Below are positions 5,094-17,501 of a stretch of DNA of 64,000 nucleotides, piece by piece. Made by a program: the position numbers and the translations under genes. The stretch covers positions 248,001 to 312,000 of the forward strand of contig JAWBQJ010000001.1 of assembly GCA_038845865.1 (NCBI GenBank). The letters are read 5' to 3'. The DNA is from Desulfurococcaceae archaeon. GTDB taxonomy: Archaea; Thermoproteota; Thermoprotei_A; Sulfolobales; Desulfurococcaceae. Numbering within the stretch: position 1 is the stretch's first letter; each line of letters opens with the position of its first letter. The notes beneath the pieces are model-generated. The model saw nothing but the letters and a program-made list of their open reading frames with translations. It searched no databases and was not told the DNA's origin.

Positions 5094-5102
5094 GTGGGGC
5101 AG

Positions 5103-6038
5103 TTGGTCAAAGTACTCGTTGCAAGCAGAATTCACAAGAACGGTATAGAGGTCCTCAGAAATAGTGGTGTAGAAGTGATAGTGGCCGAGGAGCCCAGCGA
5201 AAGAGAGCTCGTAAACCTAATCAAGGGTGTTCATGGCATAGTCGTGAGGAGCAAGCCGATCGTTACAAGAAAGGTTATAGAAGAAGCTGATCGGCTTCTC
5301 GTAATAGCGAGGGCCGGCGTCGGAGTAGACAACATAGATGTGGAGGCTGCTAAGGCTCGTGGCATAGAGGTCATAACAGTGCCGGAGGCTACAACGCAGA
5401 GCGTTGCAGAGCTAACAATAGGTTTAATGCTAGCCGTGGCGAGAAAGATAACCCTGTGCGATAGAGAAATACGTAGAGGTGAATGGCCTAAAAAACACGC
5501 TATGGGGTTTGAACTAGGCGGCAAAGTACTCGGCATTATAGGTGCAGGTAGAATAGGGTCTACCGTGGCCAAGATCGCGAAGTACGGCTTCGGCATGAAA
5601 ATACTTTACTATGACATAGTACGAAACCCTAAAATAGAGGAGGAGCTCGGAGCCGAGTTCGTATCATTAGAAGAGCTGCTGAGAACTGCCGACTTCATAA
5701 GTGTGCACGTTCCACTAACACCCGAAACAAAGCACCTGATCGGCGAAGATGAGTTGAAATTGATGAAGAAAACAGCAATACTTATTAACACTTCACGTGG
5801 CCCCATAGTGGACACGAGTGCGCTCATAAGGGCCCTCGAAGAAGGCTGGATAGCGGGTGCAGGGCTTGATGTATTTGAAGAAGAGCCGCTACCAAAAGAC
5901 CATGCACTAACCAAACTAGATAACGTAGTATTAACAGCACATGTGGGTGCAAGCACTTGGGAGGCGCAGGAAAGGGCTGGTATAGAAGTCGCCAGAAAAG
6001 TGATAGAATTCTTCAAAGCCAAGGGTTTGCTAAACTAG
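5103..6038 (+). CDS. serA: D-3-phosphoglycerate dehydrogenase (short form without ACT domain)
   Basis: About 311 residues. D-isomer 2-hydroxyacid dehydrogenase: Rossmann motif GIIGAGRIGST near 148, then INTSRGPIVD (Arg), GLDVFEEEP (Glu) and TAHVGAST (His) of the catalytic triad. It oxidises 3-phosphoglycerate to 3-phosphohydroxypyruvate. The protein ends after the nucleotide/substrate domains, so the serine-sensing ACT domain of longer enzymes is absent. GTG 5094 abuts the upstream stop, but GGTGGGG just before TTG 5103 favours TTG. Operon partner of the class V aminotransferase. Confidence 0.88.
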   Translation: MVKVLVASRIHKNGIEVLRNSGVEVIVAEEPSERELVNLIKGVHGIVVRSKPIVTRKVIEEADRLLVIARAGVGVDNIDVEAAKARGIEVITVPEATTQSVAELTIGLMLAVARKITLCDREIRRGEWPKKHAMGFELGGKVLGIIGAGRIGSTVAKIAKYGFGMKILYYDIVRNPKIEEELGAEFVSLEELLRTADFISVHVPLTPETKHLIGEDELKLMKKTAILINTSRGPIVDTSALIRALEEGWIAGAGLDVFEEEPLPKDHALTKLDNVVLTAHVGASTWEAQERAGIEVARKVIEFFKAKGLLN

Positions 6039-6067: not shown

Positions 6068-6079
6068 ACTTTTTAAAGG
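6068..6079 (+). promoter_or_regulatory. TATA box of the initiator tRNA-Met gene
   Basis: ACTTTTTAAAGG with a purine-rich BRE-like stretch (GGGGAA) just upstream. It is about 26 bases before 6100, so the transcript would begin at or near the left arm of the flanking inverted repeat. Confidence 0.55.
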
Positions 6080-6099
6080 GAGGTAGAATCATTGTTAAA

Positions 6100-6332
6100 G
6101 TGGCGGGGCTAAATAGCGGGGTAGGGCAGCCTGGTAGCCCGCGGGAGGCATGGTTACCACCTCTTCGAAGAGGTGGTAACTATCCCGCGAAGCTCATAGG
6201 AGGGTGCCGTACCGCTCTCGGGGATACGCGTAAGGGTCCAGCCCGAGGTCGGTGGTTCAAAGCGGGGTGCCCTGAAGGGCACCCCGAGAGAGTCCACCCC
6301 CCGCTATCCCGCTGCAAGGCGGGCCCCGCCAC
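6100..6332. repeat. 10-bp inverted repeat flanking the tRNA-Met gene
   Basis: GTGGCGGGGC at 6100-6109 is exactly complementary to GCCCCGCCAC at 6323-6332. The arms enclose the whole tRNA gene (6115-6306), with a 5-base gap on the left and a 16-base gap on the right. In the precursor RNA they could form a stem that extends the acceptor end. Within the right gap CCCGC/GCGGG (6308-6312/6319-6323) could form a competing hairpin. Confidence 0.6.
6115..6306 (+). tRNA. initiator tRNA-Met(CAU) with four introns
   Basis: Exons: 6115-6145, 6192-6198, 6226-6227, 6242-6261 and 6293-6306 (31+7+2+20+14 = 74 nt). The spliced product has acceptor AGCGGGG/CCCCGCT with discriminator A, D arm GGGC/GCCC, anticodon stem CGGGG/CCCCG containing the initiator-type GGG:CCC pairs, loop CTCATAA, variable AGGTC and T arm GGTGG/CCACC with loop TTCAAAT. 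Introns: 46 nt at 30/31 (6146-6191), 27 nt at 37/38 (6199-6225), 14 nt at 39/40 (6228-6241), 31 nt at 59/60 (6262-6292). Each gives 3-nt bulges around a central helix; two central helices have one mismatch. CCA is not encoded. Identity is firm; the 39/40 intron is the least certain. Confidence 0.88.
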
Positions 6333-6422
6333 TTCCACTCGCTCTTCCTTACCCCTAGCAAATTTCTGGGCGTGTGCTGCCTGAACGCGCAATTGCTACG
6401 TTGCGTTGTAAGTTTAGAGCAC

Positions 6423-6515: not shown

Positions 6516-7799
6516 TTGACTACGCAAAAAGGTGCGTGCCACGTGTCAAGGTTTTGCGGGTGGATAATACGTAAGGCCAAGGTTGGTAAAGTAACTATTT
6601 TGGAGATTTGTGGAAATAATACCAAGCCCATAGTGCTCGTGTTGAAAGAGGACCGTGATGGAGAGCTTTACACGCTGGCAGACAAGTTGGATGCGGGCTC
6701 GGCCGTGTGCTTTGAGGGTGAGATAGCGCCAGAGCAGAAGAGCAAGCGTGGGGTCGAGTACGTCGCCAGGAAAATCGAGGTCTATGGCAAGCCTGTAGAG
6801 CCTCTACCGGTGGACGTGTCAGGTAAGGTACCGACACTTCTCGATACGAGGATAAAGTACAGGTGGTTACTTGCTAGAAACCCAGCTGAAAAAGCCCTAT
6901 TTAAAATCAGATCCGGCGTAATTAGCGCCGCTAGGGAATACTTCGAAAAGAACGGCTTCGTGGAAGTGCACACACCTAAAATAGTAGCGGCAGGGGCCGA
7001 AGGGGGTGCCACGCTGTTCAAGGTACAGTACTTCGAAAAAGAGGCGTTTCTGAGTCAAAGTCCACAGCTATATAAGCAAATGCTAATTGCAAGCTTCGAG
7101 AAGATATATGAAATAACACCCTACTTTAGAGCTGAGAAATTCAACACTACGAGACACCTTAACGAGTCCTGGGGCATCGACGCAGAGCAGGGGTTTATTA
7201 GTGGGGTGGAAGATGTGATGCAAACACTTGAAAACCTCATAGTCTACATCCTAGACTACATAGCGCGTCATTACGGAGAGGAGCTCGAAGTACTCGGTGC
7301 TGAATTACCAAGAGTCACTACGCCGTTTAGGAGGTTAAAGTTCACGGAAGCCGTTGACATTCTAAGAGGCGAGGGCGTAGAAGTAAGCGAGACTGAAGAC
7401 TTAAGCGATGCCGCCGAGAAAAAGCTCGGCGAGGTAATGATGGAGAAGAAGCACTACCTGTACTTCATTGTGGGCTTTCCGTGGAAATCAACTGCATTTT
7501 ACTACATGAGAGAAGAAGATGGAATTTACGCTAGAAAATTCGACCTGGATTTCAAGGGGTTAGAACTGGCTAGTGGAGGTCAGCGGGAACATAGGTACGA
7601 AAGACTTATCGAGGCGATGAGAGATAAGGGCCTAAACCCCGTGGACTTCGAGTTCTACTTAGAGTCCTTTAAGTATGCCGTACCCCCGCATGGAGGTTTT
7701 GGACTGGGGTTGGAAAGGCTACTGATGAAGATGCTCAACCTAGAGAACATAAGGGAGGCGATAATGTTTGTTCGTGACAGGACGAGGCTGGTACCTTAA
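6516..7799 (+). CDS. aspS: aspartyl-tRNA synthetase (archaeal type)
   Basis: 427 residues. N-terminal OB-fold anticodon-binding domain, shorter than usual, then a class IIb catalytic core: QSPQLYKQ, motif 2 FRAEKFNTTRHLNE, and motif 3 GFGLGLERLLM with C-terminal REAIMFVRDRTR. Attaches aspartate to tRNA-Asp; archaeal enzymes of this type are sometimes non-discriminating and also charge tRNA-Asn, and the motifs alone do not exclude AsnRS. TTG 6516 is the first start after an in-frame stop at 6507; a GTG at 6540 has a GGTG Shine-Dalgarno but would remove part of the first OB strand. Confidence 0.85.
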   Translation: MTTQKGACHVSRFCGWIIRKAKVGKVTILEICGNNTKPIVLVLKEDRDGELYTLADKLDAGSAVCFEGEIAPEQKSKRGVEYVARKIEVYGKPVEPLPVDVSGKVPTLLDTRIKYRWLLARNPAEKALFKIRSGVISAAREYFEKNGFVEVHTPKIVAAGAEGGATLFKVQYFEKEAFLSQSPQLYKQMLIASFEKIYEITPYFRAEKFNTTRHLNESWGIDAEQGFISGVEDVMQTLENLIVYILDYIARHYGEELEVLGAELPRVTTPFRRLKFTEAVDILRGEGVEVSETEDLSDAAEKKLGEVMMEKKHYLYFIVGFPWKSTAFYYMREEDGIYARKFDLDFKGLELASGGQREHRYERLIEAMRDKGLNPVDFEFYLESFKYAVPPHGGFGLGLERLLMKMLNLENIREAIMFVRDRTRLVP

Positions 7800-16287: not shown

Positions 16288-17400
16288 ATGCCGGTTAGGT
16301 TAAACTACATGTATTATCCATTTGCAGCGTCGCCACGCGATTACCCTAAGCTATTCATTGAAAAACCAAGCATTGTAGTCTTGAGCAGTGACCTTAAAGA
16401 AAAGCTACTTCATGTGTTAAAAAGCATCATTGAAAGAGGAGATGTACCCGTTGAAGCCTTCAGCAACCCGGAGGAATGCGTGCTGGTGTATAATGCCCTT
16501 CTAGACGTGGCTAAGTTCCTGGGCGAACACAGACTAATTAACAGAATAGCCTTAGCGTATTCTAAATCGGCTTCGAGGAAGCTAGATAGAGAAAAGGATG
16601 AAGTATTAGTAGCGGTTGCGAACAAGTTAGAGGTGTATGCCAGGCTAGAACGGATGAGCCCTCCATGCCTTCCCGTAGTTATGAGGCGTGGACGGAGGTC
16701 TAGAGTAGGTTTTACTCCCCATATGTTTACGATGCCCGTGGCCGAGTATCTGAACATTGTTTCTCGTAGATTAGTACACGATCCCGCATACTTGCTCGTG
16801 AACAACATTGTAAACGAGGGTTACGTGTTCTTGAACAGGCAGAAGTTCAAGCGAATCCTGGAAGAGCTAATCTTCCAAGCCGTTGTAAGGCAGATCGATC
16901 TTCAAGTGCCCCCTGTTACGGAAGAGTTCAAAAAACTGATCGAAGAGGTAAAGCCGCTTATAGCAGGTTTATACAATCACATCCACGGGAAACGGGCTAT
17001 TCCAAGCTACGATGTAGATGTACCCAGGGAAGTCGTAGAAGGCCTTTTTCCGCCTTGCATTAGGAGGATCGTTGACATAATTGATAGTGGAGGTAACCCG
17101 AGTCACTTCGAAAGATTTAACTTAGCTGCATTCCTCGGAAGTGTAGGATTAGACGTAGACGGTATATTAGAATACTTTAAGAGAACGGCTGATTTTAACG
17201 AAAGAGTAGCGAGGTACCAAGTGGAACATATCCTAGGTCTAAGGGGTGGCAAGAAAAAGTATAAGCCATATAATTGTGACCGAATGAAGGCGACTGGCAT
17301 GTGCCCCGTTAATGAGCATTGTCCTGGAGGTAAAAACCCTCTAGCTGTATATAAGCACAACCTCAAGGAGGCAAGGAAAACTAGTAGCAAGAGTACGTGA
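16288..17400 (+). CDS. priL: DNA primase large subunit
   Basis: 370 residues. C-terminal Fe-S domain with the four expected cysteines: C257 (FPPC), C330 (YNC), C339 and C345 (CPVNEHC). PriL partners the catalytic PriS to make primers for DNA replication; PriS is not in the window. The N-terminal helical domain (to about 230) shows the conserved YPFA near residue 10. ATG 16288 follows GAGGGG, part of which overlaps the end of C/D sRNA 2. The stop overlaps the last base of the opposite-strand tRNA-Thr. Confidence 0.9.
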   Translation: MPVRLNYMYYPFAASPRDYPKLFIEKPSIVVLSSDLKEKLLHVLKSIIERGDVPVEAFSNPEECVLVYNALLDVAKFLGEHRLINRIALAYSKSASRKLDREKDEVLVAVANKLEVYARLERMSPPCLPVVMRRGRRSRVGFTPHMFTMPVAEYLNIVSRRLVHDPAYLLVNNIVNEGYVFLNRQKFKRILEELIFQAVVRQIDLQVPPVTEEFKKLIEEVKPLIAGLYNHIHGKRAIPSYDVDVPREVVEGLFPPCIRRIVDIIDSGGNPSHFERFNLAAFLGSVGLDVDGILEYFKRTADFNERVARYQVEHILGLRGGKKKYKPYNCDRMKATGMCPVNEHCPGGKNPLAVYKHNLKEARKTSSKST

Positions 17401-17501
17401 GCCGCCGGCGGGATTTGAACCCGCGTCCACCGGCTACCTTAACGGACCTAAGTGAACTCCGCTTACAAGGCCGGCGCTCCACCAGGCTGAGCTACGGCGG
17501 C
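17400..17501 (-). tRNA. tRNA-Thr(UGU) with one intron at 37/38
   Basis: Acceptor GCCGCCG/CGGCGGC with discriminator U (complement of 17400), D stem GCTC/GAGC, anticodon stem CCGGC/GCCGG, loop CTTGTA-A, variable TGGAC, T stem GCGGG/CCCGC with loop TTCAAAT. U73 is normal for archaeal tRNA-Thr. The intron is 28 nt (17436-17463) and fits the canonical motif perfectly: outer anticodon stem, bulge TA|A, 4-bp helix CTTG/TAAG, bulge GT|A and inner helix GCGGA/TCCGT. CCA not encoded. Confidence 0.95.

What the first reader, a model, noticed from the sequence alone, without database searches (positions are those of the whole stretch)
6115..6306. Initiator tRNA-Met gene broken by four introns
192 bp encode a 74-nt tRNA. 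I can account for every base: introns of 46, 27, 14 and 31 nt at 30/31, 37/38, 39/40 and 59/60 leave a perfect initiator tRNA with GGG:CCC in the anticodon stem. Intron 1 has a 4-bp CGCG/CGCG helix with bulges GG|A and AA|G; intron 4 has outer T-stem, bulges AA|G and AG|T and a 10-bp hairpin. Multi-intron tRNAs are known in Thermoproteales; four in one initiator tRNA would be at the extreme of what I know.
Basis: partly seen in the sequence, partly recalled or inferred. Interest (0 to 1): 0.8.

Follow-up and report, generated by a model that had tools for sequence, protein, structure and literature searches.

The report
Initiator tRNA gene with four introns
The only start-codon (initiator) tRNA gene found in this heat-loving archaeon's genome is cut into five pieces by four small introns, one more than the published maximum I could find, and in related archaea the same sites carry large introns with "homing endonuclease" genes, which suggests how this essential gene became so interrupted.

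Summary
Window 6115-6306 encodes a 74-nt initiator tRNA-Met cut by introns of 46, 27, 14 and 31 nt at 30/31, 37/38, 39/40 and 59/60. A splice parser given no junctions returned exactly these. No excision of three or fewer introns yields the mature sequence, and only one four-intron solution has a bulge-helix-bulge (BHB) helix at every junction. Four same-genus genomes carry intronless genes identical to the predicted 74 nt, at the same locus between serA and aspS. I found no second initiator gene in the 99.5% complete genome, which encodes both splicing-endonuclease subunits and the ligase RtcB. Three introns per tRNA is the maximum stated in the papers I could read. Four other genomes in two families also show four. 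Intron 3 is nested: its outer helix pairs exon with intron 2, so it must leave first, and in ten genes the 39/40 intron never occurs without the 37/38 intron. In relatives, introns at 30/31, 37/38 and 59/60 carry three different LAGLIDADG-type ORFs, and one genus has a trans-split version. The window introns are probably endonuclease-free remnants of repeated homing. Splicing and homing are inferred, not shown. The lineage is Desulfurococcaceae-like, not Thermoproteales.

The parts
6070..6077 (+). TATA-box-like TTTTTAAA, about 37 nt upstream of the tRNA; would place the transcript start near the 5' end of the leader stem
   Evidence: sequence; inferred, not tested
6098..6109 (+). 5' strand of leader-trailer stem (AAGTGGCGGGGC)
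   Evidence: 12 bp complementary to 6323-6334; the stem recurs with compensatory changes in relatives
6115..6145 (+). exon 1, tRNA positions 1-30
6146..6191 (+). intron 1 (46 nt, 30/31): full 4-bp central helix CGCG/CGCG, bulges GG|A and AA|G, no outer helix
   Evidence: helix pair probability 0.99-1.0
6192..6198 (+). exon 2 (GCTCATA), positions 31-37, contains the CAU anticodon
6199..6225 (+). intron 2 (27 nt, canonical 37/38): 3 of 4 central pairs, 7-bp inner helix; the anticodon stem would be the outer helix once introns 1 and 3 are gone
   Evidence: not the minimum-energy fold
6226..6227 (+). exon 3, a 2-nt micro-exon (AC), positions 38-39
6228..6241 (+). intron 3 (14 nt, 39/40): central helix GGAT/GTCC, bulges AC|G and AG|C, 6-bp outer helix between intron 2 (CTCTCGG) and exon 4 (CCGAGG), so it must be removed before intron 2
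   Evidence: outer helix in the minimum-energy fold
6242..6261 (+). exon 4, positions 40-59
6262..6292 (+). intron 4 (31 nt, 59/60): T stem as outer helix, 3 of 4 central pairs, 10-bp hairpin
   Evidence: T stem and hairpin in the minimum-energy fold
6293..6306 (+). exon 5, positions 60-73 (CCA not encoded)
6323..6334 (+). 3' strand of leader-trailer stem (GCCCCGCCACTT)
5094..6038 (+). flanking gene: D-3-phosphoglycerate-dehydrogenase-like protein (serA), syntenic anchor
6516..7799 (+). flanking gene: aspartyl-tRNA-synthetase-like protein (aspS), syntenic anchor

Best explanation
This is the single functional initiator tRNA-Met gene of a hyperthermophilic Desulfurococcaceae-like archaeon, transcribed as one precursor of five exons. 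The two-subunit splicing endonuclease cuts four BHB or relaxed-BHB sites, and RtcB joins the exons into the standard 74-nt initiator. Shown by sequence: the unique exact four-intron solution, the orthologous intronless genes, the single copy, and the presence of the enzymes' genes. Inferred: that all four introns are excised in the cell, and the order, with intron 3 (nested, using intron 2 as part of its outer helix) before intron 2. The introns most likely arose by repeated insertion at homing sites in this highly conserved gene and are now endonuclease-free mini-introns; that origin is a separate, weaker claim (see the section on the most novel reading).
For: Independent parse and shuffle control. 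Cloverleaf and ARAGORN call on the spliced form only. Intronless orthologues in G001, G003, G005 and G006 identical to the predicted mature sequence, at the same serA-aspS locus. Other tRNA genes account for the rest of the genome's set and none is a second initiator. Splicing endonuclease: two PF01974 genes, 94 and 34 bits. RtcB present. The same four sites are occupied in G002 and, in another family, G151.
Against: No RNA data. At 37 C the predicted minimum-energy fold does not form the intron-2 BHB in any splicing state, nor the central helix of intron 4, so two sites depend on the endonuclease tolerating relaxed BHBs or on folding in vivo. Intron 2 has an A.G and intron 4 an A.A mismatch in the central helix. 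The heterotetramer type of the endonuclease is inferred from having two subunit genes.
Confidence: 0.94

Rival explanations
1. The gene has three introns: positions 37-41 are interrupted by one 41-nt intron (6199-6239) rather than by two introns flanking a 2-nt micro-exon.
For: A generic aligner without BHB scoring prefers it; it avoids a 2-nt exon.
Against: It leaves G39 opposite G31 and so breaks the GGG:CCC initiator hallmark; only 2 of 4 central-helix pairs form and there is no inner or outer helix; it does not give the sequence of the intronless orthologues. A separate 39/40 intron is seen in nine other genes.
Confidence: 0.03
2. The copy is a decaying pseudogene and another gene supplies the initiator.
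For: Four interruptions look like decay; weak central helices at two sites.
Against: No second initiator found in a genome rated 99.5% complete. All 74 exon bases are intact and identical to those of relatives. Two distinct relatives (G002, G151) keep the same four-site architecture.
Confidence: 0.02
3. The four-intron arrangement is an assembly artefact of a metagenome-type genome.
For: The genome is in 8 contigs and its source is not named; G004, a relative, has an N run exactly in this gene.
Against: Every inserted block has BHB structure with conserved ends; the same four sites are occupied in independent genomes G002 (public record JAGDWI010000001.1) and G151.
Confidence: 0.01
4. The introns were acquired by transposition of generic BHB introns between tRNA genes, as reported for Thermoproteales, not by homing-endonuclease-driven insertion at the initiator locus.
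For: Intron transposition among tRNA genes is reported (Fujishima et al. 2010, as described in PMC4090602 and PMC4033280). About a third of the other tRNA genes of this genome carry introns by ARAGORN. None of the four introns of the window has an ORF.
Against: At three of the four sites relatives carry site-specific LAGLIDADG-type ORFs, and intron ends are shared between ORF-bearing and mini-introns (CTCGGGGAT at 37/38, CCCGCGAA at 30/31). I did not search the genome for copies of these introns.
Confidence: 0.3

Closest known systems
Multi-intron archaeal tRNA genes (tRNA-Glu of Pyrobaculum calidifontis, tRNA-Pro of P. islandicum)
   Same: Several BHB introns at canonical and non-canonical sites in one tRNA; some must be removed before another BHB can form (PMC8450103, PMC4390854).
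   Different: Three introns is the stated maximum there; here four, in the initiator, in a Desulfurococcaceae-like lineage.
Permuted initiator tRNA of Thermofilum pendens (PMC3218864)
   Same: Initiator tRNA disrupted at exactly 59/60 plus a canonical 37/38 intron.
   Different: There the exon order is permuted; in the window all five exons are collinear.
Split tRNAs (Nanoarchaeum iMet at 37/38; Staphylothermus and Nanoarchaeum Lys at 30/31; PMC3218864)
   Same: The break points 30/31 and 37/38 coincide with window introns 1 and 2.
   Different: The window gene is one transcription unit. A trans-split iMet at 30/31 is seen in relative G054.
16S rRNA introns of Thermoproteales (PMC4496867)
   Same: Sites occupied alternatively by LAGLIDADG introns, remnants and hairpin mini-introns; a homing intron (Pog.S1213) co-converts a neighbouring hairpin intron (Pog.S1205), like the 37/38 and 39/40 pair here.
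   Different: rRNA, not tRNA; in the window the mini-introns have no ORF.

Membership tests
Archaeal initiator tRNA-Met | CAU anticodon, A1:U72, three G:C pairs 29-31:39-41 | tested here: met
   spliced sequence and fold
Archaeal initiator tRNA-Met | orthology and exact identity with intact initiator genes of the genus | tested here: met
   G001, G003, G005, G006 identical 74 nt; same serA-aspS locus
Archaeal BHB tRNA introns | 3-nt bulges cut after the second base, about 4-bp central helix | tested here: met
   central pairs 4, 3, 4, 3 for introns 1-4; introns 2 and 4 are relaxed forms
Archaeal BHB tRNA introns | BHB formed in the predicted precursor fold | tested here: inconclusive
   intron 1 helix p about 1.0; outer helix of 3, T stem and hairpin of 4 formed; intron 2 BHB and central helices of 3 and 4 not favoured
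Archaeal BHB tRNA introns | tRNA splicing endonuclease able to cut non-canonical sites (two-subunit type) and RtcB present in the genome | tested here: met
   two PF01974 genes and RtcB; subunit assembly inferred
Archaeal BHB tRNA introns | excision and ligation in vivo | not testable with these tools
   needs RNA
Split or permuted tRNA | exons on separate transcripts or out of order | tested here: not met
   five exons collinear within 192 nt on one strand
Homing-endonuclease intron | ORF for a homing endonuclease inside the intron | tested here: not met
   window introns are 14-46 nt; ORFs occur only in relatives' introns at 30/31, 37/38, 59/60

The most novel reading that the evidence does not exclude
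The initiator tRNA gene of this archaeal order is a landing site for at least three families of LAGLIDADG homing endonucleases (30/31, 37/38 and 59/60), with a nested 39/40 mini-intron carried along by co-conversion with 37/38. Homing introns decay to mini-introns, giving the four-intron gene of the window, or the far exon gains its own promoter and the gene becomes trans-split, as in G054. This would link homing endonucleases to the origin of tRNA introns and split tRNAs.
Probability: 0.55. Interest if true: 0.85.

Novelty: new variant of a known kind. Interest (0 to 1): 0.66.

Why it matters
How archaeal tRNA genes become interrupted, split or permuted is a long-standing question. Here the essential initiator gene exists within one genus with none, one and four introns at the same locus, and across the order also with endonuclease-bearing introns and as trans-split halves. 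That gives a natural series in which gain, loss and splitting can be tested directly, with a defined candidate agent (LAGLIDADG proteins) and a defined DNA target (the intronless iMet gene). The window gene is also a demanding substrate for ordered tRNA splicing, with a 2-nt micro-exon and a nested intron. Standard tools fail on it: both ARAGORN and the Rfam tRNA model miss the unspliced gene.

Tried and rejected
Rfam at gathering threshold and at E up to 10 over the locus found no tRNA, only chance miRNA matches. ARAGORN misses the unspliced gene. A generic intron-tolerant aligner gave a three-intron parse with a G39 mismatch, rejected on BHB and comparative grounds. A single-sequence structure model of the 37/38 ORF was too poor to use (pLDDT 47). 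phmmer of that ORF against the PDB found nothing. The Pfam LAGLIDADG match of the 37/38 ORFs stays below the curated cut-off, so their identity rests on two DG motifs, position in the intron and the stronger matches of the other two families. My parser's internal splits inside introns over 1 kb (L128, L129, L133, L134, L169, L173) are artefacts and were not used for counting; those genes were read by eye. The sigma-70 promoter and terminator scan found nothing and does not apply to archaea.

Full report
What is there. Window 6115-6306 reads as five exons of 31, 7, 2, 20 and 14 nt and four introns of 46, 27, 14 and 31 nt. The exons join to a 74-nt tRNA that folds into a perfect cloverleaf with A1:U72, a GGG:CCC anticodon stem and CAU. 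ARAGORN calls the spliced form tRNA-Met and misses the unspliced form; Rfam also misses it.

Is it more than chance? I wrote a dynamic-programming parser that knows only the mature sequence and a score for bulge-helix-bulge (BHB) geometry. Shuffling the interior 200 times gave at most 83.8 against 141.2. Enumerating all exact excisions gave none with three or fewer introns, three with four introns, and one with at least three central-helix pairs at every intron. No junction can slide by a base. The 41-nt three-intron rival breaks G31:C39 and has no helix to support it.

Comparative proof of the mature sequence. Of eight same-genus genomes, G001, G003, G005 and G006 have intronless initiator genes identical to the predicted 74 nt; G007 has one intron (30/31, 42 nt); G002 has four at the same sites as the window (31, 25, 29 and 187 nt); G004 has an N run in the gene. 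All eight lie beside the same serA-like and aspS-like genes. In protein trees of these neighbours G002 groups with G007, not with G000, so the four-intron state was gained twice, or lost repeatedly, within one genus (support moderate).

Is it the working gene? The own genome (1.45 Mb, 99.5% complete) has one match to the initiator 5' end with up to two mismatches and one copy of the last exon. The Rfam search lists 45 other tRNA places, 44 above the cut-off. The two CAU tRNAs among them start GGGCCCG and GCCGCCG, unlike the initiator. Two tRNA-splicing-endonuclease genes fit the heterotetrameric type, which PMC4090602 describes as lenient in substrate; RtcB is present.

How it probably works. 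Intron 1 has a full 4-bp helix that folds with probability near 1. Intron 3 has a GGAT/GTCC helix, and its 6-bp outer helix pairs the 3' part of intron 2 with exon CCGAGG. Once intron 2 is gone that outer helix is lost, so intron 3 should be removed first; its removal then restores CCCCG and the anticodon stem that serves intron 2. Across the survey the 39/40 intron was found in ten genes of nine genomes (G000, G002, G008, G017, G035 twice, G051, G057, G093, G151), always together with a 37/38 intron. Introns 2 and 4 are relaxed BHBs with three of four central pairs. Folding at 37 C does not favour the intron-2 BHB or the intron-4 central helix; this is the main weakness and needs RNA data.

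How unusual. [quoted passage not shown] PMC4390854 and PMC4033280 also state three as the maximum. A full-text search for 'four introns' with tRNA and archaeal found nothing relevant. So four exceeds the published maximum available to me. GtRNAdb and subscription papers, including the primary Sugahara et al. papers, could not be checked. The window is not alone: G002, G035 (30/31, 37/38, 39/40 and 64/65), G151 (another family, same four sites) and G008 (37/38 intron about 1.2 kb) also have four.

Where the introns may come from. In relatives the same sites hold much larger insertions with ORFs: at 30/31 an ORF of about 375-389 aa on the opposite strand (G011, G023, G036, G107, G037), at 37/38 one of about 340-380 aa on the same strand (G008, G017, G035, G051, G057), and at 59/60 one of about 212-231 aa (G011, G037). 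The 59/60 ORFs match Pfam LAGLIDADG_3 at 31 and 51 bits (cut-off 22.5); one 30/31 ORF matches at 24.1 bits; the 37/38 ORFs stay below cut-off but share GIIDGDG-type motifs. A model of the 30/31 protein (pLDDT 84) has the archaeal intron endonuclease I-DmoI as its best structural matches, but only at E 0.007 and query TM 0.26, so this is support and not proof. Intron ends are shared between ORF-bearing and mini-introns (CTCGGGGAT at 37/38; CCCGCGAA at 30/31), which suggests common descent. PMC4496867 describes the same life cycle for 16S rRNA introns, including co-conversion of a neighbouring hairpin intron, a close analogue of the 37/38 and 39/40 pair. I found no paper reporting homing-endonuclease ORFs in archaeal tRNA introns, but the library is partial.

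Split genes. In G054 the halves lie on opposite strands with ordinary genes between them, so that initiator must be trans-spliced at 30/31 if the assembly is right. In several ORF-bearing loci a TATA-like box precedes the 3' half. Together these suggest a path from intron through endonuclease-bearing intron to split gene. This is inference.

Taxonomy. Public records identical to G002 and G007 are titled Desulfurococcaceae archaeon KUA_Bin13 and Thermoproteota archaeon DRTY-1.bins.32.

Verdict. The gene is a new extreme of a known kind, and the orthologous loci make the origin of such introns testable.

Noticed in passing
L130/L195 (G011), L131 (G023), L132 (G036), L137/L202 (G037), L157 (G107): Initiator tRNA genes with LAGLIDADG-type ORFs at 30/31 and, in G011 and G037, a second one at 59/60; the G011 gene spans 2263 bp. 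The G011 30/31 ORF is frameshifted relative to the one in G023.
   Followed up: partly
L128 (G051), L129 (G017), L133 (G008), L134 (G035), L135 (G057): Initiator tRNA genes with a 340-380-aa LAGLIDADG-like ORF at 37/38, often with a TATA-like box before the 3' half.
   Followed up: partly
L138 (G054); L154/L184 (G114, same genus, 5' half only): In G054 the initiator tRNA is trans-split at 30/31: halves on opposite strands, ordinary genes between. G114 has the matching 5' half; its 3' half was not sought.
   Followed up: partly
L137 (G037): 5' part on the opposite strand to the middle and 3' parts, at the start of a contig: real inversion with trans-splicing, or an assembly artefact.
   Followed up: partly
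L136 (G013): A TnpB-like ORF (four-cysteine motif) lies inside the 37/38 intron region of the initiator tRNA gene, next to a truncated endonuclease-like ORF.
   Followed up: no
window 6098-6109 and 6323-6334: Leader and trailer of the initiator pre-tRNA form a 12-bp stem. It recurs across the order with compensatory changes (e.g. TGGTGGGGC/GCCCCACCA, TGGGGCCGTT/AACGGCCCCA, TGGGAGGC/GCCTCCCA), but is absent in a few genomes. Function unknown.
   Followed up: partly
G000:C3:78693-81377 (L204, L205): RtcB is split by about 1.3 kb inside one 962-aa open frame: probably an intein in the tRNA ligase.
   Followed up: no
window 17400-17501 (-): Second tRNA gene of the window, tRNA-Thr(TGT) with a 28-nt anticodon-loop intron.
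   Followed up: no
L198 (G004): The initiator gene of this relative is collapsed around an N run, so its intron content is unknown.
   Followed up: no
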